The notes under the pieces are model-generated. The model made no database searches. It worked only from the letters and a program-made list of their open reading frames with translations, and was not told the DNA's origin. 64,000 nt of DNA, taken from positions 62,001 to 126,000 of the forward strand of contig NW_017264206.1 in assembly GCF_001619985.1 (NCBI RefSeq). The letters are read 5' to 3'. This stretch comes from Xylona heveae TC161 (taxonomy: Eukaryota; Ascomycota; Xylonomycetes; Xylonales; Xylonaceae). Shown here piece after piece: positions 44,798 to 60,954 of this stretch. The translations under genes and the position numbers were made by a program. Position 1 is the stretch's first letter. Every line of letters starts with the position of its first letter.

Positions 44798-46726
44798 ATG
44801 TGGCACTCCACTCCTTACTCGCAAAGCCGCTTTGCTTTGCTTTTCCATCTTTTCTTTGCTCTTTATCTTTCTCTCACAGCTGCGCTGCCTCTGTCTTCAG
44901 ACAGTTCTCCTTCATTTCACAACATATCTGACCCCCATACGCCTCCAGCGAATCTGACCAAAGTTCCTCTCGTTTATAACCCCAAATATGAAAAAAACGG
45001 CACAAAGTCCTATGTCTCTCTCTTGACAAAGTGTATGCCCTCTATTACGCCTTGGAGGCTTTGTGATTCAAACTAAACTTTTACGCAGACAGCTTTGCGC
45101 CAACCAAAGAGGGCCCATACTTTATCACCGACCAAGTCAACGAACAAGGCAAACATGGCGTGCTCAAAAAGGTTGGCGGTCGCGCCCAGGTTCGCAGAAA
45201 TGTCCTACGGAAGAGACAGGACAATGGCCAGGCCGGTGAAGTTCCTGCGGAAGACCAGCAGAATGATAGCATGTATCTCGCGCCGGTGAAAATTGGTACA
45301 CCTGGACAGAAATTCATGCTGGACTTTGATACCGGTTCTGCCGATCTCTGGGTACGCCTGCCGAGCGCTTTTGATTCGACTTGAAAATGGGCTAATGAAT
45401 CAATAGGTGTGGTCTACGGAGCTCCCTAGCTCACTTCAGTCTCAAAGCTCCAAACACAGAATCTTTAACCCTGACAAGTCTAGCACCTATAAGAATATGG
45501 ATGGATACACTTGGAAGATTCAGTACGGCGACTCGTCATCAGCCTCTGGTACTGTTGGAACAGACAATGTCAACCTTGGCGGTTTGGTCGTCAAGAACCA
45601 GGGCATCGAGCTGGCCAGCCAACTTTCTCAACAATTTGCGCAGGGCGTTGGTGATGGTCTTCTCGGCTTGGCCTTCGGCTCTATCAACACTGTTCGACCT
45701 CACCCTGTAAAGACCCCAGTCGAGAACATGATTGAACAAAAGGAAATTCCCCCGTCCGCGGAACTCTTCACCGCCAAACTTAGCTCCTACCGGGACAATG
45801 AAGATTCCTTTTACACCTTTGGCTATATTGATCAGGACACGGTTAAGGCTTCAGGCCAGGATGTCTATTACACGCCCGTCGACAACTCTCAGGGCTTTTG
45901 GATGTTTGGCTCTGGCTCGGCCACGGTTAACGGCAAGACTATCAACCGTAGCGGCAACACCGCTATTGCGGACACCGGAACCACACTGGCCCTCATTGAC
46001 GACAACACCTGTGAAGCCATTTACAATGCTATTCCCGGCGCGAAATACGACCAGACTCAGCAGGGCTATACTTTCCCAAAGAGCACTTCAGCCGATAAGC
46101 TTCCCACAGTTAGCTTTGCCGTTGGTGGCAAGCAATTTTATGTTCAGGTACGAGAATGACGCTTTGCTGCTATCAAGTGTGGCCTGCTGACCATTTTAAC
46201 AGAAGGAGGATCTTGCCTTTGCTGATATTGGTAACGGTTACGTCTATGGAGGCATTCAGTCGCGCGGAAGCATGTCCTTTGACATTCTTGGTGACACGTT
46301 TTTGAAGAGCATCTATGCTGTAAGTCTCTCCGTACCATAGACTTGTGCTTTAAGTCTTATGCATATTAATATGGCTTTTAGATTTTTGACCAGGGAAACA
46401 CCCGCTTTGGGGCAGTCCAGCGCGGTAGCTCTCCTGGTGGCGGCGATGGCGGTGATGGCGGGGACGGTGGTGACGGTGGTGACGGTGGCGACGGTGGCGA
46501 CGGTGGCGATGGTGGTGATGATGGCAATGACCCATGGTGGGACCCCTTTGGGGATGATCCATTTGGCTGGGGTAACGACGGCGACGACGGTGACAATGGC
46601 AATGGCAATGACCCGTGGTGGGACCCCTTTGGTTGGGGCAATGATGGCGGCGATGATTGTGATGATGACCCTTTTGGCTGGCTTGATCCTCACAATTGGG
46701 ATGCTACTCGCAAGAATCAGGAGTAG
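44798..46726 (+). CDS. pepsin-like aspartic protease with Gly/Asp-rich tail
   Basis: Secreted A1-family endopeptidase. Exons 44798-45032, 45089-45351, 45407-46147, 46203-46319 and 46382-46726 give 566 aa. A signal peptide (hydrophobic run [20 protein letters not shown]) leads into a propeptide with a dibasic LRKRQ maturation site. The two catalytic Asp are 159 ([10 protein letters not shown]) and 355 (IADTGTTLA). The flap YGDSSSASG and C-terminal [18 protein letters not shown] are canonical. What is odd is the last 100 residues: a (Gly-Gly-Asp)n run, then acidic aromatic blocks with DPWWDPFG twice. There is no GPI signal. The upstream in-frame TTG is not used as start. Confidence 0.92.
46430..46725 (+). 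repeat. GGTGAC minisatellite coding a protease tail
   Basis: Degenerate GGTGGCGAC/GATGGCGGT units at about 46434-46530 encode Gly-Gly-Asp repeats. They are followed by two copies of a segment encoding DPWWDPFG (about 46530-46560 and 46611-46635). The frame stays open to the protease stop codon, which argues for selection on the tail. Confidence 0.75.
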
Positions 46727-46944
46727 ATGTAGATTACCGTTTGCAGTCATTGTTTGCCTGCCGCTGAAGCAGTGCAAGATTCAGCAGTGGCGGTGTCAAA
46801 TGACATGGAGGACATGATTACTATTGTTCTCCGTGCAAACCAGGAAAATAGAAAAACGAAAAATAGGTGGATGACAATACAAATAGTGGTACAAGGAATA
46901 ACTCAAATACCACACAATTTCCACCAAAAAAGGGCAAAAAGTTA

Positions 46945-47054
46945 TGCGTCGACCGGAATCGAACCTGGGCTTCGTCGATGGCAACGACGAATTTCACCAT
47001 AATTCGCCTCAAATAAAAAGCGTTGATGGTTTAGTGGTAATAAACCATCAACGC
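46945..47054 (-). pseudogene. scrambled tRNA-Gly(GCC) copy
   Basis: On the minus strand the 3' two-thirds of tRNA-Gly lies at 46945-46999, with several base changes and one missing base against the intact copies. At 47020-47054 the first 14 bases of the tRNA occur as a perfect inverted repeat (arms 47020-47033 and 47041-47054, loop GTGGTAA). Read on the minus strand this is a tRNA gene broken by about 40 bases that include an inverted copy of its own 5' end. It cannot fold as a tRNA. Confidence 0.8.
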
Positions 47055-47521: not shown

Positions 47522-48850
47522 CTAGGGCGCCTTGATTCCATTGCCACACGTGCGATCTTGAGTATTTTCGGGCGTCGATAGTGAAAGATGACGGTCATCT
47601 TGCGCTTCGAGAGAACTTGAGCAGGAGCGTTTTCGTTTAGTCCCGTTTGGAAGGGGACATGTAGGCTGTTGCGGAGGGCGTTCCCAGGAGATGATATTTT
47701 GATTACGATCTCTCAAGCTCCGTCTCGTCCTCATAATTCTGCCACGTTCGACGATTGGCGCTCCGTCTTCTCCGTGGCCTGTAATGACTGGCGAAGGTGG
47801 GGGTATCGTAGGTATGTCGAATGGCTTGGGTTCAGGTACAAAGGGAGCAACATCGCAAATTGCCTTGCGGCGTTGAACCCATTCATTCAGATGCTTGCGA
47901 AAGAGTGCGACATCGTTATCCAACTTGCATTTCACTGGCCATTCCTCGAGACTTTGTACTGACTCTGGGTTTTGCTCCTGAAATGGCACATGGCGATAGT
48001 GTTCGTCCTGCGTGATAATCTCGTACAACGTAAATATGACACCGGCGACGTCATTCCTCTGAGGAACACACCAAGGATGACCGACTGGGGCGGCTCGGTC
48101 AAAATCAAAGAGCAGTATATTTTGTGTCTTGGAGTCGAGTAGAATGTTTCGTGCTGCCACATCCTGGTGAATGATACCCAGCTCCAAGTTGAGATAGTCA
48201 ACTACGGAGGTAAGTTGTTGAAAGTACTCTAATCGAAATATACGACTCTTATTATCATCCAAACAACCGCCAGGAACGTAAGCTGTTGTAAAACCGAGGA
48301 CGCGGGACTCAACATCATCGACGACGACGCGGTCAAACGGAACCAGATTCGGGTGAGCAGGAAGGCTTTTTGTGATATGCAGTTCGTGCCATATTTTTGT
48401 CCGCCTCTGGAAAATCATGCTGTATTTGAAGACGACCTTTCTTTGCGCTTCGGGTTTGTCGCTATCGGAATAGCTTACCAAGTCAACGCCGGGCCCGAGT
48501 CGATCTAACTCGGCGAGTCGAGAAATCTCGATAGTAGAACAAGATTGTAGGGATGGAGACTTGGCGTAGCGTGGGTAATGGATAGTCAAGAGGGGGTCAT
48601 CTTCAGGAGCTGATGAAACTGAGGTGAGCAAACCGTCATCATCCACGGTGATCGAGTAAACACTTGGAGCAAGATGATCAATGTAGCGCTTCAGCACATC
48701 AATATCCTTATCCTCCTCGGGGGGGATGAACTTTATTGAGCCATTGATAGTATACCATCGACGTTGATCCCAATCAATGACGGTGCCGGCGTGCAAGTCT
48801 CCAGTAACACTCTCACTACAGACCCAGAATCTATCTTCTGGACGGATCAT
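47522..48850 (-). CDS. divergent protein-kinase-like protein
   Basis: Single exon, 442 aa. The N-terminal 125 residues are unassigned. The kinase fold spans about 128-330: beta-3 Lys142 (VVFKYSM), helix-C Glu156, hinge-like AYVPGGCL, then HQDVAARN (228-235) instead of HRD, and DFD (249-251) instead of DFG. The ATP-positioning Lys, catalytic Asp230, Asn235 and metal Asp249 remain, so activity is possible. The Arg and Gly changes mark it as a non-canonical member. A clear glycine loop is absent. The tail is Pro-rich with Arg/Lys clusters (RTRRSLRDR, KRKR) suggesting nuclear import. Lineage-specific kinase-like genes of this kind are common in fungal accessory regions. No substrate can be proposed. 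Confidence 0.75.
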   Translation of the reverse strand: MIRPEDRFWVCSESVTGDLHAGTVIDWDQRRWYTINGSIKFIPPEEDKDIDVLKRYIDHLAPSVYSITVDDDGLLTSVSSAPEDDPLLTIHYPRYAKSPSLQSCSTIEISRLAELDRLGPGVDLVSYSDSDKPEAQRKVVFKYSMIFQRRTKIWHELHITKSLPAHPNLVPFDRVVVDDVESRVLGFTTAYVPGGCLDDNKSRIFRLEYFQQLTSVVDYLNLELGIIHQDVAARNILLDSKTQNILLFDFDRAAPVGHPWCVPQRNDVAGVIFTLYEIITQDEHYRHVPFQEQNPESVQSLEEWPVKCKLDNDVALFRKHLNEWVQRRKAICDVAPFVPEPKPFDIPTIPPPSPVITGHGEDGAPIVERGRIMRTRRSLRDRNQNIISWERPPQQPTCPLPNGTKRKRSCSSSLEAQDDRHLSLSTPENTQDRTCGNGIKAP

Positions 48851-49610
48851 GATGAATAGAGTTCGTGACTGTCCAATCAGCCTGAGCGGGGAGCTATTTG
48901 GTACTCTAAGGAAGAGGAGGTATTCTTCACAAAGTCAAAGAGCAGAAGCGCTATTGGAATCTGTATGTAGAATAAGCTCCAGGCTTCGCGGCGGTTATGA
49001 ATCTCAAATAACCATGGTGGTGGTGGATTGATGGAGACGACACGCTAAAGGGGATAGGTGTTACCGCCGGACAGCCGGGCGGCTATACCCGAAGGGCCCG
49101 TGCATCCTTGATCTGGGGCTAAGTCGCCTCTCAGGTGTTTACTTCCAAAGCATCCTGAAACAGGTTACAGCTTTATATAGAGGTCCAAGAGCGCTTCTCT
49201 TAAAATAGAGTTTTATATTTAGGTATTTTCAGCTTTTTCTTCACATGTAAAACATGACCTTGTCGATGGCGCGCCAAAACGGCTTCTCAGAAAACTATAT
49301 ATTTTTCATTTCAGTCCTCTCTTATTTTTCTCTACGACAACGAATTTTCCTGAGTACAAACAGCGCCTCTCTTCTGCTATATATTCTCTCTAGAACATAT
49401 GCTCTAGGCTCTATGTATGCTTGTTGACTCATTGTTATACCCGTGACGGCCCGCGTGAACAAGCCTCTCAAATACGCTACTGAATCTCGACGCCGAAACC
49501 AAAGAAGGGAATTGATATACGAGGCTCTCAAAAAGCCGATTCGGCCTGGACGAAGAAAGATATCATTCAATTGTTTATATTTCCATTCGACTTCTTCAAA
49601 CACCAAAGTC
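48851..49610. other. divergent intergenic region
   Basis: Between the kinase-like gene and the Cys-rich ORF. The rightward frame is open from about 49443 to 49610 but has no ATG there. It could be an upstream exon or leader of the Cys-rich gene. Confidence 0.45.
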
Positions 49611-49865
49611 ATGCCTGTCATTATGCCTGGTGATATCGGCGACGATGTAGAACTTCAATTGGTCAATGACACTTCCAATCCTGGCAACTGTACCTGCGGT
49701 TGGTACATTTACTATTCGAGTGTGTGCAATCACGCATATACAAATTATAAATATACGTGTGGAGCGCGCACGACAAGATCGGGAGTAAGCGGCTTTTGCG
49801 GAAGCCCGGCCCCCAGACACATCGTGGTCGGTACGACCGTAGGAAGGTCTTGTCAGCTCTGTTAG
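49611..49865 (+). CDS. small Cys-rich protein, 84 residues
   Basis: Not assigned. Starting at the first ATG in frame, it carries seven Cys (27, 29, 39, 50, 63, 81, 84) and His41 and His70: C-x-C-GWYIYYSSVC-x-H, then single Cys, then CxxC at the very end. There is no signal peptide (MPVIMPGDIGDD is acidic and polar), so intracellular zinc binding is more likely than a disulfide-bonded effector. The pattern of paired Cys, aromatic WYxYY and terminal CxxC resembles small lineage-specific fungal proteins, but I cannot name a family. The same frame is open for 56 codons upstream without ATG, so a further exon is possible. Confidence 0.55.
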   Translation: MPVIMPGDIGDDVELQLVNDTSNPGNCTCGWYIYYSSVCNHAYTNYKYTCGARTTRSGVSGFCGSPAPRHIVVGTTVGRSCQLC

Positions 49866-50881
49866 CGGAGTCATTGAAGGTAAGAGGCTTGGTGTTTCTC
49901 TGACTTGGCCAAATGCTGATGATAGTACTAGTGTGATATTGCTATCTGCTCGTTATGTCATTTACCTGCTTCTCGCTTTGATATCTGAATTGCTAGGACT
50001 CTCAAGAACATATTCCCAGTACTGGTACTTTGGCATATATGGTTTTCAGATATAGAATCTTTTCTGTTTTGCGCTTTCTCATAGTTCTTTTGAGTACTGT
50101 TTACGGTCTTTCTTTCTTTCTTTTCCTTGTTTTTGGCCTTCTCTTTTGTTTCTATCATGACTATATATACTATCTTGTGCAAACGCAATGCAAACCTATA
50201 ATATGATGCAGAACAACAAATTGTCACTGAGTAGTGCTTTTTGGTAAACTACAGGCCTGTATACGCCGTATTAAAATGTTCCGTTGTATGTAGTATCACG
50301 GCCAAGAGTTTCCTGCAGGCCCGCCTTAGATATATATCGTTCCCTACTCTTTAGTCCAGGTTCCCCTGTCTTTACACCTCCTGATTTAATCTAATTTATT
50401 ACTTATAGTAATTCTATTCTTCCGTACATCTGAGTGAAGCACCTGAAGCATTATGACTTCATCATTTCTTACTTCTGCCCCGTTCCATCCCATTCCCCAC
50501 CAAACATTCCCAATCTACTTCCAGCCACGCCTTTATTTATCATGTTCCTACGCGTCTACGACAGTACTTTTTTACATAATTGATCCGTATACTTTCCCGA
50601 CAGAGCATCAAAATATTTATCAATGCCTATGCCCGCTTATTGTCGAAGTCTCAATAGGGTTGCGTAATTGTCTATCATTCTCCAGCTCAGCCAGTTAGCA
50701 TCTTTTTTTTTTTTTTGCCACAACGCTTTGAATTTATTACCAGATACAGTTGAGATCCTCTTCCTCCTCTATCCAATTCTTGCGTATGCTACATTTCCAA
50801 CCAAATCACATTCATAACGGTTGAGATAATTAGGCTAATATTGAACCGTCTCAGTGGTTGTTTAATTACTGGCTGCGAACA
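49866..50881. other. intergenic; one weak small ORF
   Basis: Rightward ATG ORF at 50453-50698 (81 aa, no features) is probably chance. T-rich runs lie at about 50105-50145 and 50703-50716 (T14). Likely promoter of the microprotein gene at the right end. Confidence 0.4.
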
Positions 50882-51091
50882 ATGGACTGGATAAAAAAGC
50901 TATTTACACCAAAAAGTCGTCACACTGGAGGCCACAATCAATATGCTCGTGCGCGAGAGCGAGAACTGAGACGTAAACGCAACGGTGGCAGGACGTCGAA
51001 GACGCCCTTTTTCTGGGGTTCGCCCGGGACGACGTTTGAGAATCAGGGTAAGGAAAATTGGAATGAGTATATGAAGAAGAACAGTGGGTGA
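50882..51091 (+). CDS. microprotein family member A, 69 residues
   Basis: Unknown function. It is supported as a gene because a second copy of exactly the same length lies at 57920-58129. It opens with an amphipathic MDWIKKLFT, a variable basic stretch (11-20), the strongly conserved RARERELRRKRNGG (23-36), then KTPFFWG (40-46), and ends in a variable polar tail. There is no Cys, signal peptide or membrane segment. The charge is strongly positive in the middle, compatible with nucleic-acid, acidic-membrane or partner binding. ATG 50882 is chosen because homology starts exactly there; an in-frame non-ATG extension upstream is ignored. By hand alignment about 29 of 69 residues are identical, without gaps. 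Confidence 0.65.
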   Translation: MDWIKKLFTPKSRHTGGHNQYARARERELRRKRNGGRTSKTPFFWGSPGTTFENQGKENWNEYMKKNSG

Positions 51092-51710
51092 TTCGAATCC
51101 TAAATCACCATGAAAAAATCCGGGGTGAAATCTGCAATCCTTAATGGAGGGTCCTAACGCTCTTGTGGAGATTATGGCGCGCGAAGTTAGTGGGGGGTCC
51201 GTCGTCTATCGGGGCGTTGTAGCCGCTGGATAGCCGCTGGATATAGTGGGCCGAGCTTAGAATAACGTACAACCTGCATTTTAAAAGAGATACAAAAAGA
51301 ATATTCATAAACGAATCCTAAAGTAAACCTGAAATTATTGGCACAATCTTTCGGAGCTATGCGTTAGCAGAGACATTTTGCGACCGTGCGATATTATCGC
51401 ATTATGGAGAGGAATTGGTGCAATTCCCAGCACGCGTAGATGTTTTAAACGTAAAATCCTTTGTTATCCATGACCCGAAACAAAGCCCGACACAGTCAAT
51501 AATACCTCTGACCCATTAGTCAGTCACATCCTTGCTGTTCGCACCGCAACGGGTGAGAATGATTGTCCAAGCTTGCTAAGCATATTTAGCACAGAATTTT
51601 TGGTAATTACAGATAGACGTCAGGTCTTACTACACAAAGTTCAAATCCGGAGAAGCTACCCCTCCAACGTTTGCATAGTACTCTGCCTCTCCCACCCATA
51701 TTTCTTTACA
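51092..51710. other. intergenic, no gene seen
   Basis: Includes the upstream region of the APH-like gene. The frame of that gene is open back to about 51573, without an earlier ATG. Nothing else. Confidence 0.5.
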
Positions 51711-52659
51711 ATGACGAACCCGTATGAAACGGACCCGGAAAAGATTCCATCAACCGACCCGTACGCTGATGTACCCTTTTATGGTCGATACCGCCCAAGA
51801 CCTGGTGACTTCCGCGTTGACCTCCAGCATGTCAACTCCCATAGTACAGACTCCCTGAGATACTGGGCATCGGTCGTTAGTCTCTGCACCGAAGAGAATC
51901 GCATTTATCCAGCTGACGAAGGCGGTCGTGACGTTTTTGCTCTCGGTAGCGTGATCGTGAAGTCCAGCCATCTCCACGCGCGAGCAGGTGCTCAATCTAC
52001 GGAGATTGACTTCTCCTATGCCGATGCAAATGAGCATCGGGCAATCACTCTGGCAAAGACCGTTTTGAAGGATGTCAAAGTTCCAGAAATTTACTTTGCT
52101 GGCAAGGTACTTATACTTGCTATTCGTTTATAAAACTCGATGACTCACATCCGCTCAGATAAATGGTCGCCAAGTGCTCGTCCAAGAAAGGCTTCCGGGA
52201 GTCGCATTATGCGTCGCGCGGCCATATTTATCCAGAGACCAGAGGGATTCCTATAAAGAACAGGCGAGGAAGATACTCCATCAACTTCACACTATCAAGC
52301 CTCCAGAGAATCTGCAAGCTCGATCTCACGTGGTATCGGACCCAAACATACTCAGTAACGGTCGGATCAACCCGTTAGAAGGGGACATCCTTTTTTCAGG
52401 CACCAATCATGATCCAGATATGAGCTTCATGCATAACGATCTTACGGAATCTAATTGCATTGTTGATAATGGCATAATTGTGGGGCTTATTGACTGGGAA
52501 ATGGCGGGCTTTTTTGGCTGGAAGACCGCCGGAGAGGTCCACCGTCGGATCAGAACCCCGCAACGAGAGCACTTTGTGAACGTCAATTTGAGGGAGGAAC
52601 AGCTTCAGGGTATTCTGTATTGGAATGATCTATATGATCAGGATGTGTCAAAGAATTAA
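51711..52659 (+). CDS. APH-like phosphotransferase
   Basis: Aminoglycoside-phosphotransferase/choline-kinase-fold protein of the large fungal APH family. Exons 51711-52106 and 52159-52659 (52-nt intron, join AGK|INGRQVLVQERLPG) give 298 aa. The nucleotide-binding Lys is probably in SVIVKSS, followed by EHRAITLAK (helix-C-like Glu) and the hinge VLVQERLPGVAL. The catalytic loop is MHNDLTESN with His224, Asp226 and Asn231. The metal motif is IDWE (Asp244). Such fungal proteins rarely act on antibiotics; small-molecule or peptide phosphorylation is unproven here. Length is typical for the family. It is the second kinase-fold gene of this island. Confidence 0.83.
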
Positions 52660-52973
52660 GCCTGTAGGGTCTCGAATTCCCAGGGACATTTTTGTACTAT
52701 CCTATTCACTTCTTTGAGGAATTGCAAAGACCCCTCCATGGCTTTGCCCCATCCATTGAGAGCGGCTGAAAACCTTCAATGACTTTTCGCGACACGAAAT
52801 ATAGCTCCTGCACTGGGAATAGCCAGCCATCGCCGAAGGAAAACAACTCCTAAAGATGTAAAGATTAGAATGGCGACGGCACTTCTCGGATACTATGGAA
52901 ATGCTGAAAAGCGGAAATTGGTCTTGGAATGGCGAATATATTAGGTAATAGTACTCGTTCCGAGTATCGCAAA
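52660..52973. other. short intergenic region before the first tRNA
   Basis: No gene seen. The immediate tRNA 5' flank has a 6-bp inverted repeat TACTCG/CGAGTA. Confidence 0.4.
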
Positions 52974-53044
52974 GCGTTGATGGTTTAGTGGTAAAATTCG
53001 TCGTTGCCATCGACGAGCCCCGGGTTCGATTCCCGGTCGACGCA
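52974..53044 (+). tRNA. tRNA-Gly (GCC), copy 1
   Basis: 71 nt, no intron. The acceptor stem GCGTTGA pairs with TCGACGC, discriminator A. A box TGGTTTAGTGG and B box GGTTCGATTCC are intact. The anticodon GCC is at 53006-53008 within loop TTGCCAT. A T-rich run just downstream (TTTTTTTT) is a Pol III terminator. Confidence 0.96.
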
Positions 53045-54057
53045 TATAATTTTTTTTCTTATATTTAGCCCTTCGCTTCAGGATGTGTTTCTAGGCATCA
53101 ATTTATTTTGCCTTGGTTTGGTTATTATAACCAACCTCAACGAGGTCTATAGCCATCCGCCTATTGACCTTAGTAGATAAATCAACTCGACTACCTTTAA
53201 TCATTCTAATGATTTTAATATTACTTTTTTGCCACTATATGCTTGATATCTTAATAACAAGATATTATAAAATACAGGGATGAAGAGGTTATAGAGCAGG
53301 TATTAGTATATGTTATGACTACTAGACGTTAATATAAAGGGAATTACAAAGAAAAATAAAGTTCTATCAAGCTATACTATAGGCTCCTTGCAAGATATCT
53401 TTCATAATAGCTGGTTCCAGACTCGACTAACCAGCTAGATGATAGAAGTACGAGGTTCAATAGCAGTTAGTCATATAGTCAGTGGGACCCTACCTTCTTC
53501 CTTGCCCATCTACGCATCCAATCCGGCCCCCATCACCTGACAAATTGACTGTATAGTTCTTTCCTACGCCGCATGATTTCAATGACGCCAGATTTGTCTG
53601 GTTTTTGTAATTGCTTATGTCATTTCTGTTGAGCCTTAGTCCAGTACTCCGATATACTATCCCAACAATTCATAGCAGTTCACACTGCACAACCATGACC
53701 CCCACGTCCCCTTGACTGTTGAAATCATATAACGAGTACGAGAAGCTATTGAAACGGCCAGACATGTCAACCATGTCTCTCGGATTACTAAACTTAGATA
53801 AGCACGTATACGGTATGCATGTATCTCATGCTCTAGATCTTTTGGGGTATATATGAGAATGCACGTGGCGATTGTGGGTTCGAGGTTTGTTCCGTTTGGT
53901 CAGACGAAATGGTTTGAGCAGTTCGTGTTTTGGCCTGGCATATCTCATATTTCTCTTTTCCAAGCTTCATACCAATACTACTTAATAGAAGGCGAAAATA
54001 GAGGGGAAAAGGGAACAAGGGCATAGCAAGCTAAAAAAAAAAAATCAATTCTGCAAA
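53045..54057. other. A+T-rich intergenic region
   Basis: No gene. A 15-base match (AACGAGGTCTATAGC) at 53139-53153 recurs inside the inverted-repeat element at 55058-55072, suggesting an eroded relative. Many TA-rich words at about 53200-53350 hint at old mutational decay. Confidence 0.45.
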
Positions 54058-54823
54058 ATGCATTTCAACCCATCAAGTCTCGTCATATTTGCCACGACGT
54101 TGCCACTACTCGCATCACTGTCGTCCGCATCGCCTGTACTGGACGTTGCTCAGCGCCGCGACACCGTTCCCTCTGGAAGCTACTACACTGTCGAGCGGCT
54201 GCCATGGGACGGCGTCACGCCTGTGCCGCATGAGGGCGAATACCTCTACCCGTACTCAACTGGCACAGGTCCAGGAACAACCGTGGCGGCGTTTACATCG
54301 GACAAGACGCTCGCAGTGAAGGGATACATAACCGAGACGACGACGTTTGAACTTGGCATTGCATTATCTGCATTCCCCTGGACGATGCAGATTCCGAGCA
54401 GTAACGTATCAGCTGCAGTGCCGGTAACGATTGAGGCGAACGCGACCACGCCTGGGACGGTAGGGTTTGGGTACAGTATTGGTGCAAAGCCGGGATTGTG
54501 GACGTCGGCCGTTGCTGGATTTGATGGGTTTTTCGCATGTGAGTCTACCGATTTTTATTCTTGTTTTCGGGGATGCTGCTCAAGAGGATATCTGTTGTGA
54601 GCTGCGTCTCGTCAGGTCAGGAAGGAGTACCCGCATAGGATGCTGTAAATTGAGAAGATTGCCATGGCCGATAAGAAATCGATGCTGACATTGAGTGAAT
54701 GGGGGGTTTTTTTTAGGCGACACATCGCTCAATATCACTCAGCTCTTTGGAATAATCAGATATGGAAGGAGCTATTCGATTCCAAGTGGGTGCGCAGAAA
54801 TTCAACTGGACAAAGCAAATTGA
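54058..54823 (+). CDS. small secreted hypothetical protein
   Basis: Not recognised. Exons 54058-54538 and 54717-54823 give 195 aa. The intron of 178 nt (GTGAGT donor, TTTTTTTTAG acceptor) is long for this genome. Read without splicing the frame ends after about 20 unlikely residues, while the spliced version continues as FFACDTSLNITQLFG. The signal peptide is about 24 residues (hydrophobic FATTLPLLASLSSA, then SPVLD). A dibasic RR follows soon. The mature part is rich in Thr, Gly, Pro and Tyr, with three N-glycosylation sequons (NVS, NAT, NIT) and two Cys in exon 2's reach. It may be a wall or extracellular protein. Confidence 0.6.
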
Positions 54824-54995
54824 AGGATTTAACCCAGTATAATGTCTTCTGGAGCCCTAGAGCAGAGGGGAAAGTGTGATGGGAAGGTGCAGACTGTTTT
54901 ACCGCTAGCGAGCTGCATGTTTTTTATAGACATGGGGGAGCAAAGACAGAGATGAAGTTGATGATTGAGGCAGTCAGGTTGATTCAGCTAGCAGA

Positions 54996-55137
54996 AAAAG
55001 TTATATGATTCTTATCCACAATACTCGTGAAATATTCGCTTTCGTTTAACCGACCCAAACGAGGTCTATAGCTAACTTATCTGCCCATCGAAAGGGAGTA
55101 TTTCACGAGTATTGGGGATAAGAATAATAACTTTTAT
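54996..55137. mobile_element. short inverted-repeat element (MITE-like)
   Basis: Two arms of about 49 nt (54996-55044 and 55089-55137) are imperfect inverted copies; the inner 34 bases differ at about three positions (core AATACTCGTGAAATA). A 44-nt centre separates them. No coding capacity. Flanking target duplication is not clear. It lies 22 bp upstream of the second tRNA gene. It may be a tiny non-autonomous DNA element or a stable hairpin. Confidence 0.6.
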
Positions 55138-55159
55138 GAGGCACATTCTTCAACAGGAA

Positions 55160-55230
55160 GCGTTGATGGTTTAGTGGTAAAATTCGTCGTTGCCATCGAC
55201 GAGCCCCGGGTTCGATTCCCGGTCGACGCA
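55160..55230 (+). tRNA. tRNA-Gly (GCC), copy 2
   Basis: The 71 nt are identical to copy 1, with a TTTTTTTT run soon after the 3' end as terminator. The flanks are unrelated to the other copies. Confidence 0.96.
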
Positions 55231-55363
55231 TCTCAAACATATTTTTTTTCCTTTTTATTTTTTTTTGCTTCAAAACTGCTTTCAAGGAGTGAAATTGTTT
55301 TCACTTGTTGGAATAGCGATAAATTCAATGTTATACCTTGTCAGGTCCGTTTGTTGTCTTAAG

Positions 55364-55855
55364 TCATTCAGAGACTCGCTCAGAGTAAAGAAAACAATTA
55401 AATATTATCATTGGTATAGTACATTGACGAAATGTCAGGGTATCGCAGATATTAAGCAAGAACTCGAAATTTTCACCCCTTCTCAAAGAATTGCCCCAGT
55501 TGATCTCTTGTATTTCCGAACCAAAAGGACCGCAGAAATATTTGGACGATGGTAGGATCGCATCGACTTGGTGCATTGAAGGCCGCAAACCCTCAGTCGC
55601 ACTCCGAGCAGGGGGATGCTTCGTGTACAGACCAGAGAATGACTGCAATTCGGCCGCTGGTGGATATTCGGGGTAAATAGAGACGACGAGGCCGGCCTTG
55701 TTATAGTTTCGAAAGATAAAAACGAAAATATCGTCGCAGAGTCCGTCCCTCGCAGACTGAAGGTTCATATCGAACAAAAAGGCAGTAAAGACGAAACAAG
55801 GTGATTGCCATGGGCCTTGGCTAATCGCGTGAAGTATATCGTACACAGAGCCCAA
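55364..55855 (-). CDS. uncertain ORF, 163 residues
   Basis: Open from ATG 55855 to the stop, overlapping the end of the small membrane-protein gene by 35 nt in another frame. No family features; several aromatic-rich stretches and scattered Cys. It could be a later exon of the upstream gene (a GTACGA donor and ACAAG acceptor would skip the overlap), a separate gene, or chance. Weakly supported. Confidence 0.25.
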   Translation of the reverse strand: MGSVYDILHAISQGPWQSPCFVFTAFLFDMNLQSARDGLCDDIFVFIFRNYNKAGLVVSIYPEYPPAAELQSFSGLYTKHPPARSATEGLRPSMHQVDAILPSSKYFCGPFGSEIQEINWGNSLRRGENFEFLLNICDTLTFRQCTIPMIIFNCFLYSERVSE

Positions 55856-56084
55856 TGATCATGCCGATGATGCCGCCCACAATGAACCCTAGTAGTGCCC
55901 ACAGAAGCATGTACTTGATCACTCGCCCCTTGGAGCCGTGCTTCCACTCCGTGGAAACGTCTTTGTTGGTCACAATAGGCCGCTTTCGCGGTTGGTAGGT
56001 CTGGTCCTCGAGATCCATGTCCGTTGCAGCGGGAGATCCATATGGTGCGTGGGTGCGCGCTTGCTCGGGCGCTGTTGGTTCCAT
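55821..56084 (-). CDS. small single-pass membrane protein, 87 residues
   Basis: Not recognised. The N-terminal 55 residues are polar and Pro-rich (TYQPRKRPIV). A basic WKHGSKGRVIKY then leads into one membrane helix of about 23 residues, MLLWALLGFIVGGIIGMIIGLCV. Its glycine spacing (GxxxGGxxG) suggests helix packing or oligomerisation. A very short RYTSRD tail follows. No signal peptide, so probably a tail-anchored topology. The frame begins at the only good ATG. An alternative spliced C-terminus is possible (see the overlapping ORF). Confidence 0.5.
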   Translation of the reverse strand: MEPTAPEQARTHAPYGSPAATDMDLEDQTYQPRKRPIVTNKDVSTEWKHGSKGRVIKYMLLWALLGFIVGGIIGMIIGLCVRYTSRD

Positions 56085-57919
56085 TTTGATGAACGGTTTA
56101 CGAGGTTTACGTTTCCGCGCCTGAATGTGTAGAATTGGCTAAGCCCTGAAGGTATTGGAAATGGTTGTTCTGCAGGAGCTATCAATATGGAGGAACGGCG
56201 ATATCTTGTACAGTGCAGAGACTAACCTTGTGAATGTTAAACGAGGGGAAATTGGAGAGGAAGGTCCTGGTTATCTTCAATGCTGTCCTATAAGGAGGGC
56301 GCACAGTCATTTAAATGCATATTTAAGCTTCTTCTACGGAGTACTCTGTATTCGAAATCTACAAGGGCCAGGATACACCCTGGGGTCCCCGAAGGTTTGA
56401 CATCTGACAAGACCGGCCATGCAGCGGCATCCCTGCCTTCGGCGGCCCTTTGTCCGAGAGTAAACGTCGAACCGAAGGGTAAGATGGTGGCATAGCCACG
56501 ATTTGATACCCTGATTACCAGCTTGAAGCCTTCTAGCGTGGTCCTGGTGGGTCAAAGAACAAGTGCCAAGATGGTTTCCCCTCGTCGCCGAAGAGGTTAA
56601 AATTCGTTTAGTCCACGCTTGGGGACCACAAGGGAAATCCTAGGTTCTTTTTTCTCTTCTGAAGGGATTGTTGATCGTCAAGTAGTTTCCTTGAGTAGCC
56701 AAAGATGAGAAATTGCTGCAATTCCAAGAAAAATGTTACCAAAGGAACCGTTAGTCAGTAACACCTTGGCAGAAAGTCAGTGGCGGAGTCAACAAAAAAT
56801 TCGTCTAACGTAGATAGTGATATCTCGCGAAGCAACTGGAAAGAGATGTGGGACACTGGAAACTGGAGACAGTGGGGGCCAAGCACGGCATGTGGGTATG
56901 GCATATGACAGGGACCGAAAAATCTCACTCCACAGATCTGACGGCGCAAACAGGAGATATGACACAGATGATGCACAAAAAGACCATTGACAACTTCAAT
57001 TGCAATAAATCAATAAAAACAGAAATAAAAAGAATATCATCCCGATTGCTGACGAGCATGAAAATGCAGCTGCTGCCTTGTTGACATTTCAACATTGACT
57101 CATCGTTCTCAATAGTATTATCTGCATATCATGTCAGTCAGATATCTTACGGAGTACAGGGCACACCGACCATGATGGTCGTAGCACTTCTCTTACTGTC
57201 AGGCTGTGTTGCTGTGCCGTATAAGTTTCTTCGCAGTCGTGATGTTAAGCGCTTGGCATTTCCCCTTTAGGAAAAATGTGTACGCCGTTCCAAGCGGTAT
57301 GATGTCATTTGACCAGTCTGACTCCCCTTCGCTCCTCGCTTTTTCCGACAACCCCCGGTTCAACCCGCAACCGAACTACGATGACCACACAAAGCTTACA
57401 CTTTACGGAGTAAGGCTCTACGGAGTAAGCCACACATTGCGCGCGCACGCAAGAGTTCCGCTCTTCTCTGCTAATTCGCAAAAGCCCACTATTATACTTA
57501 AAACGCTTGATGCGACAAGACCAATACAAGTGTATGCATTGTCGCACGTCATTTCCAAACACAGCCATTCCGAGCGCTGGAGTCCACAGTCTTGACCGAT
57601 ACTATGCCGCACGGCGGTACTACGAGGCATAGTCGCTTTTCCGGCCTCAGGTCATATATCTAAGAACAATCACCACAGTGTACTTTGCATACTCGAATTA
57701 AAGGTGATTTTGCCCTTTATGCGATAACATTGCACTTTTGTATAAATGTCCTGACACCATTTGTAGATATAGCAGTCAAGCATAAAGCTGCTCCTCTTTT
57801 TCGAACTTGCACAGTCTAGCCATTGAGCTCATCGCGTTGTACTTATCTTCAGTCGACAAGCTTTAGTCAAACGATATATTCCGTACATATCGAACGAGAC
57901 TTTTATTTTGGATAAAAAA
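56085..57919. other. intergenic with TACGGAGTA motifs
   Basis: No convincing gene in 1.8 kb. Four exact TACGGAGTA words at 56335, 57148, 57404 and 57419. The right end is the promoter of the second microprotein gene. Confidence 0.5.
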
Positions 57920-58129
57920 ATGGACTGGCTAAAAAGACTATTCACACGCGACAATTCGACAAGGTCAAAACGCAGCAAGAGTTCGCGCGCACGGGATCGG
58001 GAACTGAGACGGAAAAGAAACGGCGGCAGTTCATGGAAGTCGCCTTTCTTCTGGGGCCCGATTGGCATGACTTATAGGGATGAGGTCAACAGGGGTATGA
58101 ATCACCATGTGAACAGGGGAGGCAGATGA
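57920..58129 (+). CDS. microprotein family member B, 69 residues
   Basis: Paralogue of the ORF at 50882-51091, same strand, same length and gap-free alignment. Conserved blocks are MDWLKRLFT, RARDRELRRKRNGG and KSPFFWG; the linker (11-20) and last 20 residues are free to vary. The DNA also differs at many third positions and the flanks show no similarity, so the copies are old and the protein, not the DNA, is conserved. That is good evidence of real coding. Very basic (many Arg/Lys), no Cys, no membrane segment. Function unknown; I do not recognise the family. Confidence 0.68.
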   Translation: MDWLKRLFTRDNSTRSKRSKSSRARDRELRRKRNGGSSWKSPFFWGPIGMTYRDEVNRGMNHHVNRGGR

Positions 58130-58408
58130 GTTTGAAAATCCCCATACTCTGAAGAACGCACAGCTCCAACTGTAGCTCTTTTTTTTTAATTAGAGGCGGC
58201 TATAGTTGGTATTTATCACTGTCGAGGAAACTCACTATTCTAGAATAATGTATAATTATTAGTCACGAGGTTATGGCTCATATTTTTGATTAACGTGAGA
58301 AATTTTATCAACTGCGGGAAAAAGAGAGCCTGAAATTTCATTCGATCTAGAAAGCCATAGCAAAGCAAATTCGTAAACTCATAATTGAAGTGCAGAGACA
58401 AATGCCGC

Positions 58409-59656
58409 TCAAGCTTCCAGCGCGTTCAGTCTAGAGGCAACTTCAAGCTCGAATCGTAGTTTTCCTTGTTCGGAGCCTGAAATCTCCTTGACGCTGTCCA
58501 TACCTGGCGTAATATCCTCATCCCAATCGTATTCAGCGCCTCTGCCTTTCAAATTGCAGAGCACCGCCATTCGAAAATGATATTTGAGCAGCGCGCGGCT
58601 TGGCTGGTATTTTGCTGGATAATCTGGGTTCAGATACATTGGCTCACCATTACCAGGCATGCGAGTTTTCCGTTTGAAATATGTAATCTTGTAATTATTC
58701 TGAACATACAAAGCTATCAGAAAACCACATACCAAAAATAAATCAGATTGAGACTGGTTCATTGCACTTACGTCCGGGTCCATCGCAACGAGGTACTTGT
58801 CAAAGAGCGTGTGAATTGTTTGGTCCAAAAGTATACCATTCTGGACTGAGTGTATGCCACTTGAGCCGGGCATTTCATCGTCGGAAAGAACTGCTGCCCA
58901 ATTCCCTGTTCGCCACTGTCCATACAGTCAGAAGCAGAGATTTACAGATGGGTAGCGAGGCCCTCCACTCACTAGATCCAAATGCGCGAGAGGAAAGATA
59001 TGGGCTGCATGGAAGGTTACAAAGTCGTAATCAAAAACTTCCTCTCTCGACACGACGCAACGCATGTCCCGATTTCGAACGCGTCTTTGGAACGCCATTT
59101 GCTAATATTGGTTAGCAGTCGCCATCCATGAAGAAAATTTGGTACAAATGGGTGGTCAATCATTCAAGTATGGTCAAGATATATAATTTATACTTACACG
59201 AGGGTCGGGGTTTGACAGAGAAAATGAAACTGTTCTCGGCGGAACTCTTTCTTCGTTAATATTGACTTGAAGACAATCTCCTGTCATCAATGTTAAAGCA
59301 ACCCTAAGAAGACAATCGATTGCATTTTCTTCCCGTCAAAAGATGCATGCAAACATGAAGAAAATGGGCCGCGTACCTTCGGGTGAGAGAATAGAATAAA
59401 ATCCAGGTGCGATCACAGTGGGGTTGCCAGCCAAGGTTATCTGAGTTCCGTGCCTGTAACCAGTCTCTGCAACATGATCGTCCACACATGTCCAGACGCT
59501 GTATGCGGTTTCTGGCATGGAAATAACAATGTGCAGCCACTCATCCATCTCTCCCCACGTTACAGATCCGGTCTGCATGAATCCTAATATTTCATCGTCA
59601 CGGCCGTCGAGAAAATGCACATTGCGTGCTACTTGGTTGTTCCTAAACCCAGGCAT
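58409..59656 (-). CDS. HNH_2-type nuclease domain protein
   Basis: Fungal protein with a C-terminal HNH endonuclease domain (PF13391 type). Five exons, 59377-59656, 59198-59280, 58973-59101, 58772-58915 and 58409-58699, give 308 aa with all phases matching. The N-terminal 120 residues (RNVHFLDG..., PGFYSIL) match the unnamed N-domain usual in these proteins. The HNH core appears as RDMRCVVSREE, then the first His in AHIFPLAH, and the second half GIHSVQNGILLDQTIHTLFD with conserved Asn and His. KITYFKR follows. The cellular role of this expanded fungal family is unknown; some are assumed degenerate. Only splicing shows the domain: the unspliced ORFs are short fragments. Confidence 0.82.
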
Positions 59657-59889
59657 CTTTGTACCTTGTAGAGAGGGCCTAAACGCTGCCGTGGTAGAAA
59701 GCTTAGGTTAGATTGTAAAAGAGAAAAAATGAAAACCAGTACTTGAGTAATGTATCAAGGTTTAAACAGTATCTGTAAAAAGAAATGTAAGGAGGTGAAG
59801 AAGGTTACTTGGGCGTGGAGGGACATATGGTCCGTGCATGTAGAGTGGCCTGTGCTTTGCATTTAGGTTTTGACCTCGGGCTTAGTAAG
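59657..59889. other. upstream region of the HNH gene
   Basis: Short leader and promoter for the leftward nuclease gene. No further feature. Confidence 0.4.
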
Positions 59890-59891
59890 TA

Positions 59892-60283
59892 ACGTATTTC
59901 CCAAGCGACCCGGCCAGGCAGATATCTCATACAAATAATGTAATTTTACAAGATTTATATCTCAACATGAATGTGTTATTTTAAATTGAAATTGAGTAAC
60001 TTAATTTTCTTAGGGCAGATCTATACATAATAATCATTTTGAATATTTTTATGTTGTTTTGCATTTTATTTCTCAAATTACATATATTTGATACTAAAAA
60101 TAGTGCATGGATTTTTCTCTGAATGGAAAAATTGAGCAAAATTCCTATAAACAGGATAACCAGCTGACATAGTCTTCTAGACCCCATGATAGAAATATCC
60201 ATTTAAAAACTACAATTTTTGTTGAGATATAATCCCATTTTTTGTAAAGAATTCTGCCTGGCCGGGTCGCTTGGGAAATACGT
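59892..60283. mobile_element. 392-bp MITE with 31-bp perfect TIRs
   Basis: The ends ACGTATTTCCC... and ...GGGAAATACGT are perfect inverted repeats over 31 bp, and similarity continues imperfectly to about 75 bp (shared TTATATCTCAACA). It is flanked by TA on both sides (59890-59891 and 60284-60285), the target duplication of Tc1/mariner-type elements. The interior is very A+T-rich and non-coding. Perfect TIRs imply recent insertion or activity of an autonomous partner elsewhere. Confidence 0.9.
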
Positions 60284-60285
60284 TA

Positions 60286-60613
60286 GTAGTAGAGAGGACT
60301 GATCATGCTCAAGCTACTAAGGAATAGATTTAGGAGAATATTATAAAGAAACCGCTAGATCTATTATATAGACTTATCACTGGTCTAGCTCTCGGGGCGA
60401 CTTATTCAACTATAGGCTTGACTTCAACCCTATATGTGTGCCAATCACCATTTACCCTTGTACGTGGGACCCGATCGCGCCGGTCAGGTCCTAATGGGTC
60501 TCCGAATACGCCCAGCAACTTATAGTACTTCGTAGATACGGAAATCAACCAGGATGTATTTGTATAGATGAATTTCGTTATTATACAGGATTTCCTAACC
60601 CAATCTTTAACAA
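60286..60613. other. intergenic, no gene seen
   Basis: Between the MITE and the third tRNA gene. Nothing supported. Confidence 0.45.
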
Positions 60614-60684
60614 GCGTTGATGGTTTAGTGGTAAAATTCGTCGTTGCCATCGACGAGCCCCGGGTTCGATTCCCGGTCGACGCA
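60614..60684 (+). tRNA. tRNA-Gly (GCC), copy 3
   Basis: Again 71 nt identical to the other two copies, followed at once by a T6 terminator. The flanks are unrelated. Confidence 0.96.
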
Positions 60685-60756
60685 TCTTTTTTGCTCTTCC
60701 GTCCGCGACCCTTCCAGTTCTTTTTTTGCCCTTACAATTCAGCCCGTGATGTGGAT

Positions 60757-60954
60757 ATGGACGCCTTATGCGACTGGGATTTTTATGTTGTCGGCGCTTT
60801 AGAGCATAGAACGTTGGGATCGTTTTTCAGGATTTCGGGTTCGACGACAATTGTATTTACAATCATGCTGACAATGTTGATGGCCGTTGTGCCCGTACAG
60901 GATCTAGTAGACTGGCTTGGTCCCATTCGACGAGAACTATTGGGGCCTGTATGA
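60757..60954 (+). CDS. uncertain small membrane ORF, 65 residues
   Basis: ATG ORF with one hydrophobic segment (TTIVFTIMLTMLMAVVPV) and an amphipathic end (DWLGPIRRELL). It starts 72 nt after the third tRNA gene. No homology known to me; may be chance. Confidence 0.2.
   Translation: MDALCDWDFYVVGALEHRTLGSFFRISGSTTIVFTIMLTMLMAVVPVQDLVDWLGPIRRELLGPV

What the first reader, a model, noticed from the sequence alone, without database searches (positions are those of the whole stretch)
50882..58129. A pair of 69-residue paralogous microproteins in an accessory island
ORFs 50882-51091 and 57920-58129 encode proteins of identical length that align without gaps, about 29 of 69 residues identical by hand. 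Conserved are an amphipathic start (MDW[IL]K[KR]LFT), a basic core (RAR[ED]RELRRKRNGG) and an aromatic motif (K[TS]PFFWG), while linker and tail vary. The flanks are unrelated, so selection on protein is the simplest explanation. I know no described family with this signature. Sitting among kinase-fold, Cys-rich and nuclease genes, it could be part of an undescribed system.
Basis: partly seen in the sequence, partly recalled or inferred. Interest (0 to 1): 0.8.

Follow-up and report, generated by a model that had tools for sequence, protein, structure and literature searches.

The report
Two related fungal mini-proteins, function unknown
A fungal chromosome stretch carries two related genes for small, positively charged proteins of 69 amino acids whose three short motifs look preserved by natural selection; they match no family we could search, but whether other fungi have them and what they do could not be tested here.

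Summary
Window 50882-51091 and 57920-58129 (+) each encode 69 residues, 29 identical without gaps. Among 250 ATG-started ORFs the pair scores E 1.4e-5; best pairs in 10 shuffled windows were E 0.001-0.022, though two tRNA-derived mock pairs in the real window reach about 2e-4. Selection on protein is supported: dN/dS 0.39, bootstrap 0.17-0.76; the antisense frame that shares the signal has stops in copy 1. Constraint sits in residues 1-9, 23-36 and 40-46; the linker is at chance, the tail near neutral. Flanks are unrelated. No relative was found in Pfam, NCBIfam, PHROGs, PDB sequences, IMG/VR, GTDB, phages (copy 2) or plasmids (copy 1), but none of these covers fungal genomes, so orphan status is untested. 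The neighbours found differ between copies, so "undescribed system" has no support. Best reading: an old duplicate pair of cysteine-free, mostly disordered basic proteins acting through docking motifs (amphipathic N-helix, Arg-rich helix, aromatic KxPFFWG). The coding claim is strong; the mechanism is inferred.

The parts
50882..51091 (+). Copy 1 (mp1), ORF, 69 aa, pI 10.8, no cysteine
57920..58129 (+). Copy 2 (mp2), ORF, 69 aa, pI 11.9, no cysteine
50882..50908 (+). Copy 1 residues 1-9, amphipathic N-terminal block MDWIKKLFT (7 of 9 identical in copy 2)
   Evidence: helix in both AF2 models
50948..50989 (+). Copy 1 residues 23-36, Arg-rich block RARERELRRKRNGG (13 of 14 identical in copy 2)
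   Evidence: mostly helix in both AF2 models
50999..51019 (+). Copy 1 residues 40-46, aromatic block KTPFFWG (6 of 7 identical in copy 2)
57920..57946 (+). Copy 2 residues 1-9, MDWLKRLFT
57986..58027 (+). Copy 2 residues 23-36, RARDRELRRKRNGG
58037..58057 (+). Copy 2 residues 40-46, KSPFFWG
51048..51053 (+). Possible 5' splice site GTAAGG inside the copy 1 tail (rival gene model)
   Evidence: pattern scan; no convincing shared downstream exon found
58095..58100 (+). Possible 5' splice site GTATGA inside the copy 2 tail (rival gene model)
   Evidence: pattern scan; no convincing shared downstream exon found

Best explanation
The two ORFs are an old pair of protein-coding duplicates in a fungal chromosome. 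Each makes a small, basic, cysteine-free, probably cytosolic or nuclear protein that is mostly disordered and works through three short contact motifs: a nine-residue amphipathic N-terminal helix (docking to a membrane or a hydrophobic groove), an arginine-rich helix RAR[ED]RELRRKRNGG (binding nucleic acid or an acidic partner, and also fitting a classical nuclear localisation signal) and an aromatic clamp K[ST]PFFWG. The linker is a free spacer and the tail is loosely constrained or specific to each copy. Shown: two intact ORFs, homology, protein-level constraint concentrated in the three blocks. Inferred: expression, disorder, location, and the binding partner of each motif.
For: Homology above chance. 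dN/dS 0.39 by NG86 and by ML, 0.61 by YN00; NG86 bootstrap 0.17-0.76 with 0 of 584 usable replicates (of 600) at or above 1. Differences by codon position 26, 22, 35 of 69 codons, third-position excess P 0.02; amino-acid identity above neutral simulation P 0.009 for the whole ORF and 0.0006 for residues 1-46; 0.056 of neutral simulations stay free of stops. dN/dS 0.07 for the three motif blocks against about 0.75 (bootstrap 0.29-1.93) for linker plus tail (the blocks were chosen after seeing the alignment, so this contrast is biased). The antisense frame that shares wobble positions has stops in copy 1. A at -3 of both ATGs; hydrophobic moment of residues 1-9 is 0.65 and 0.71, shuffle P 0.04 and 0.05. 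AF2 puts helices at 2-8, 20-33, 52-67 (copy 1, two-row alignment) and 4-8, 22-34, 52-61 (copy 2 alone), with low confidence.
Against: No transcript or orthologue was available. Synonymous codon usage of copy 1 is below that of all ten genes or ORF pieces compared (-0.09 against -0.03 to 0.09), copy 2 near zero (four of the ten were in the reference set, and 69 codons are few). The N-helix amphipathicity is marginal (0.04 and 0.08 for residues 2-8), and the two other predicted helices are not amphipathic above shuffles (P 0.11 to 0.50). AF2 models are poor (mean pLDDT 67.6 and 59.2, pTM 0.26 and 0.19), so disorder and mere lack of alignment depth cannot be told apart. The tail shows no protein-level constraint beyond a neutral simulation (BLOSUM P 0.23).
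Confidence: 0.4

Rival explanations
1. The conserved block is the first exon of a larger spliced gene: an intron begins in the 'tail' (donor GTAAGG at 51048, GTATGA at 58095), so the 69-residue length is an accident and the real proteins continue.
For: Donor-like hexamers at nearly the same alignment position in both copies, and branch-like and acceptor-like sites downstream (copy 1: CTAAC 51154, TAG 51190; copy 2: TAG 58193). The tail lacks a third-position excess (14, 10, 11 changes); linker plus tail has dN/dS about 0.75. A gapped local alignment of tail plus 200 nt is no better than shuffles (P 0.33).
Against: Six-frame comparison of about 1 kb downstream of each copy shows no convincing shared exon; the best hit, E 0.003 over 14 residues, is a wrong-frame reading inside the antisense HNH ORF. 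Both ORFs stop at the same aligned codon. Ungapped nucleotide similarity reaches the stop (34 of 69, P 0.0006; for residues 53-69 alone P 0.04) and is not seen beyond it (P 0.95).
Confidence: 0.15
2. The proteins are imported into mitochondria: the basic amphipathic N-terminus acts as a presequence and the aromatic block docks to a mitochondrial partner.
For: Amphipathic basic start; 16 and 19 Lys+Arg against 6 and 6 Asp+Glu.
Against: Asp at position 2 and Asp/Glu at 26 and 28 are unusual for a presequence (general knowledge); the most conserved block is the RRKR-type one, which fits nuclear import or nucleic-acid binding better. No predictor was on hand.
Confidence: 0.15
3. Relic or young genes without present function: the pair was duplicated long ago, is not or hardly expressed, and the conserved blocks are residual.
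For: Poor codon-usage score of copy 1; no TATAAA or TATAWA within 300 nt upstream of copy 1; no relative found in the collections at hand, which hold no fungi.
Against: In neutral simulations at the observed divergence 0.056 stay open and 0.009 reach this amino-acid identity; dN/dS bootstrap stays below 1.
Confidence: 0.15
4. Both are parts of an undescribed conflict or defence-like accessory module with the nearby kinase-fold, Cys-rich and HNH genes.
For: Pfam: protein kinase fold 47522-48850 (-) E 7.6e-9, APH phosphotransferase fold about 51711-52659 (+) E 4.8e-10, HNH_2 58409-58873 (-) E 4.6e-8.
Against: The genes found beside copy 1 (kinase, APH) and copy 2 (HNH_2) differ and lie on mixed strands; blastn of 49001-53800 against 56001-60800 gives only the small ORFs, a tRNA gene and three matches of 14-22 nt. 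The Cys-rich ORF reaches Pfam SWIM only below the curated cut-off.
Confidence: 0.06

Closest known systems
Conserved fungal small ORFs of 80 aa or less (Mat-Sharani and Firdaus-Raih 2019, PMC7394265; abstract and Results section read)
   Same: Short complete ORF with start and stop; of 1986 conserved sORFs in 31 fungal genomes, 1059 had no characterised function and 1036 of these no homologue outside the 31 genomes: the same kind of object.
   Different: That set required conservation in at least two species after clustering at 70% identity; here only two paralogues in one window are known, 42% identical.
AHH nuclease family, Pfam PF14412 (only Pfam hit up to E 1)
   Same: Weak profile similarity over residues 5-40 of copy 1, E 0.085.
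   Different: 13.3 bits against a cut-off of 22.3, partial profile, not seen with copy 2, no AHH in either sequence: taken as chance.
Pif1 helicase segment (PDB 6xzt and five more chains)
   Same: Profile of both copies aligns residues 29-58 to a KRNG...PFxW stretch, E 0.3.
   Different: Not significant; 30 residues of a 446-residue enzyme, no helicase context.
Amphipathic membrane-targeting helices such as the tails of MinD and FtsA (recalled, no call)
   Same: Short basic-aromatic amphipathic stretch.
   Different: Different position in the protein, no homology tested; a likeness of mechanism only.

Membership tests
Conserved fungal sORF (criteria of PMC7394265) | 80 residues or less, with start and stop codon | tested here: met
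   69 residues, ATG to TGA, both copies
[quoted passage not shown]
   No fungal genome collection; own genome not held. The two paralogues are 42% identical
AHH nuclease PF14412 | Score at or above the curated cut-off (22.3 bits) | tested here: not met
   13.3 bits, copy 1 only
AHH nuclease PF14412 | AHH motif named in the family description | tested here: not met
   No AHH in either sequence
Secreted cysteine-rich small protein | Several cysteines for disulfide bonds | tested here: not met
   No cysteine in either sequence
Secreted cysteine-rich small protein | N-terminal signal peptide | tested here: inconclusive
   By inspection only, no hydrophobic run in residues 1-35; no predictor was run
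Amphipathic-helix membrane-docking peptide | Amphipathic helix with a hydrophobic moment above shuffles | tested here: inconclusive
   0.65 and 0.71, shuffle P 0.04 and 0.05 over nine residues
Any Pfam, NCBIfam or PHROGs family | Curated or significant profile match | tested here: not met
   both copies

The most novel reading that the evidence does not exclude
An undescribed family of fungal motif-only microproteins that tether a nucleic acid or a nuclear factor to a membrane through a fixed amphipathic helix, Arg-rich helix and FFWG clamp joined by freely evolving linkers, kept in duplicate for different targets set by the variable tails.
Probability: 0.08. Interest if true: 0.55.

Novelty: new member of a known kind. 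Interest (0 to 1): 0.3.

Why it matters
Small ORFs are easily missed in fungal annotation, and an old duplicate pair within one window is evidence of coding that needs no second genome. If relatives exist, the signature MDW[IL]K[KR]LFT - RAR[ED]RELRRKRNGG - K[ST]PFFWG should be specific enough to find them. As it stands the pair is a well-supported gene call without a function.

Tried and rejected
Tandem or segmental duplication with neighbours: not supported; blastn of 49001-53800 against 56001-60800 gives the ORF match (70.7% over 147 columns), a tRNA match (94% over 89 bp) and three matches of 14-22 nt at E 0.24. Coding on the other strand: rejected by stops in copy 1, two of them in the linker between the blocks. 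Further exons upstream or downstream: no convincing shared segment; best six-frame hits E 0.003 downstream and 0.002 upstream, the latter in a Phe/Leu-rich stretch. Mobile-element ends: the repeat finder gave four short inverted pairs in 49800-53200 and none in 56800-58600. Known RNA at the site: at gathering threshold Rfam finds only three tRNAs in the window. uORF of the APH-like gene: not favoured, since copy 1 ends about 620 nt before the first ATG of that gene, and none of the ORFs that I scanned after copy 2 is such a gene on its strand. Secreted effector or antimicrobial peptide: no cysteine, no signal-like start by eye. Fold search was not run because both models are of low confidence. 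Weak phage hits (9 Gordonia phage records, best E 2, residues 30-58, copy 2 only) were taken as chance. PADLOC was not searched; copy 1 was not run against phages nor copy 2 against plasmids.

Literature: the strings RRKRNGG, SPFFWG, TPFFWG and RELRRKRN occur in no held paper; that covers only open PMC texts. Five topic searches (listings only) gave one paper that I opened, PMC7394265.
Full report
Observation. The two ORFs lie at 50882-51091 and 57920-58129 on the + strand, each ATG to TGA and 69 residues long. They align without gaps with 29 of 69 residues identical; the local BLASTP alignment has 29 of 66 identical and 44 of 66 positive. tblastn of both against the whole window finds no third place with E below 0.05 (next E 0.057). 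Among all ATG-started ORFs of at least 50 aa (250) the pair has E 1.4e-5 with low-complexity filtering; ten first-order Markov shuffles of the window gave best pairs of E 0.001 to 0.022. The real window also holds two mock pairs read through tRNA-like sequence at E 1.7e-4 and 2.3e-4, over 22 and 14 residues only, and a repeated Cys-rich domain with better E-values. So this is homology, not chance.

Strand and selection. Nucleotide differences fall 26, 22 and 35 on codon positions 1, 2 and 3 of 69 codons, a third-position excess with P 0.02; amino-acid identity exceeds neutral simulation (started from copy 1) with P 0.009 over the ORF and 0.0006 over residues 1-46; 0.056 of the neutral simulations keep the frame open. 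dN/dS is 0.39 by NG86 (0.47 / 1.21) and by ML (0.50 / 1.28); YN00 gives 0.61 (0.53 / 0.87). The codon bootstrap of the NG86 ratio runs from 0.17 to 0.76, 16 of 600 replicates failing. One antisense frame shows the same excess identity (26 of 45, P 0.0008), as expected for the frame that shares wobble positions, but it holds stops in copy 1, two of them in the linker between the blocks, so the sense frame is taken as the coding one.

Where the constraint is. Residues 1-9 (7 of 9 identical), 23-36 (13 of 14) and 40-46 (6 of 7) are conserved; residues 10-22 are at chance in nucleotides (12 of 39) and share no residue; the tail 47-69 shares 34 of 69 nucleotides (codon-shuffle P 0.0006; residues 53-69 alone P 0.04) but 3 of 23 residues, with no third-position excess. 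BLOSUM similarity of the tail is above shuffled order (P 0.001; residues 53-69 alone P 0.06) but not above a neutral simulation (P 0.23). The three blocks have dN/dS 0.07, linker plus tail about 0.75 with a bootstrap of 0.29-1.93; as the blocks were picked from the alignment this contrast is biased and should be read as description. Outside the ORFs 200-nt flanks are no better than shuffles (5' P 0.49, 3' P 0.95), and neither is a gapped local alignment of the tail plus 200 nt (P 0.33).

Gene model. A pattern scan shows donor-like GTAAGG at 51048 and GTATGA at 58095, within the tails. This allows a rival in which the conserved block is a first exon. No convincing shared coding segment was found downstream (best E 0.003, wrong frame inside the antisense HNH ORF) and the stops coincide, so a single-exon gene is preferred, in my judgement at about 85 to 15. 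Synonymous codon usage gives no help: -0.09 and -0.007 against -0.03 to 0.09 for ten other genes or ORF pieces of the window.

Anatomy. Both proteins are basic (16 and 19 Lys+Arg, 6 and 6 Asp+Glu, pI 10.8 and 11.9) and have no cysteine. Residues 1-9 form an amphipathic stretch, moment 0.65 and 0.71, shuffle P 0.04 and 0.05; the other predicted helices are not amphipathic above shuffles. AF2 predicts helices at 2-8, 20-33 and 52-67 in copy 1 (two-row alignment, mean pLDDT 67.6, pTM 0.26) and at 4-8, 22-34 and 52-61 in copy 2 alone (59.2, 0.19): the same plan in both, without a confident fold. The block RELRRKRN fits a monopartite nuclear localisation signal (recalled rule, no predictor run).

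Relatives. Nothing significant in Pfam (best PF14412 AHH, E 0.085, below cut-off), NCBIfam, PHROGs, PDB sequences (copy 1 best E 0.7; profile of both best Pif1 helicase E 0.3), IMG/VR (207 and 78 pattern stretches, 0 confirmed), GTDB genomes (40 stretches, 0 confirmed), phages (copy 2 only, best E 2) or plasmids (copy 1 only, no match at E 1). The IMG/VR and GTDB scans see only places that hold one of a few exact peptide patterns. By its genes the window is from a fungus, probably a filamentous ascomycete (inference): RIX1 and RNA polymerase I A49 domains and an aspartic protease closest in the PDB to that of Trichoderma reesei.

Surroundings. Protein kinase fold at 47522-48850 (-), E 7.6e-9; APH fold at about 51711-52659 (+), E 4.8e-10; DUF7907 at 54058-54600 (+), E 1.6e-11; HNH_2 at 58409-58873 (-), E 4.6e-8; a Cys-rich ORF at 49443-49865 (+) matches SWIM below the cut-off. 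Pfam was run on 20 ORF queries (19 places) between 44 and 64 kb, of 81 ORFs of 60 aa or more listed there, many of them overlapping. The neighbours found differ between the copies; the only other repeated feature of the two neighbourhoods beyond 22 nt is a tRNA-Gly(GCC) gene, of which the window has three with equal Rfam scores. This argues against a conserved module, though two copies cannot settle it. The island itself is not shown: G+C of 0.38-0.49 in 42-64 kb is lower than in most of 24-42 kb but overlaps that of 1-24 kb.

Conclusion. A real, old pair of coding duplicates with a strong three-motif signature and no known function: at most a new family of a known kind, fungal small-ORF proteins (PMC7394265 counted 1036 fungi-specific conserved sORFs of uncharacterised function in 31 genomes). 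The mechanism offered, a disordered docking protein with membrane-type, nucleic-acid or NLS-type and aromatic motifs, is inferred from sequence.

Noticed in passing
52974-53044, 55160-55230, 60614-60684: Three tRNA-Gly(GCC) genes on the + strand with equal Rfam scores within 8 kb; readings through them give mock paralogous ORFs (52702-53010 and 60402-60650).
   Followed up: partly
46821-47000: An ORF sharing 14 of 22 residues with an ORF at 60568-60954 that runs through a tRNA-Gly gene, although neither ARAGORN nor Rfam calls a tRNA there: possible tRNA-Gly fragment.
   Followed up: no
24426-26817: Minus-strand ORFs holding a Cys-rich domain repeated several times (80% over 50 residues between out-of-frame readings of neighbouring copies, 49% over 49 to a further copy), WSC-like by eye; Pfam not run on it.
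   Followed up: no
49443-49865: Cys-rich ORF with a sub-threshold SWIM zinc-finger match (E 0.003 from an internal ATG), perhaps a piece of a larger or decayed gene.
   Followed up: partly
58409-59656: HNH_2 nuclease ORF with a sub-threshold DUF7881-like ORF upstream on the same strand (E 0.016), perhaps one spliced gene.
   Followed up: partly
46350-46777: Low-complexity stretch that stays open in several frames (His/Arg-rich, Pro/Ser-rich and Val/Thr-rich readings).
   Followed up: no
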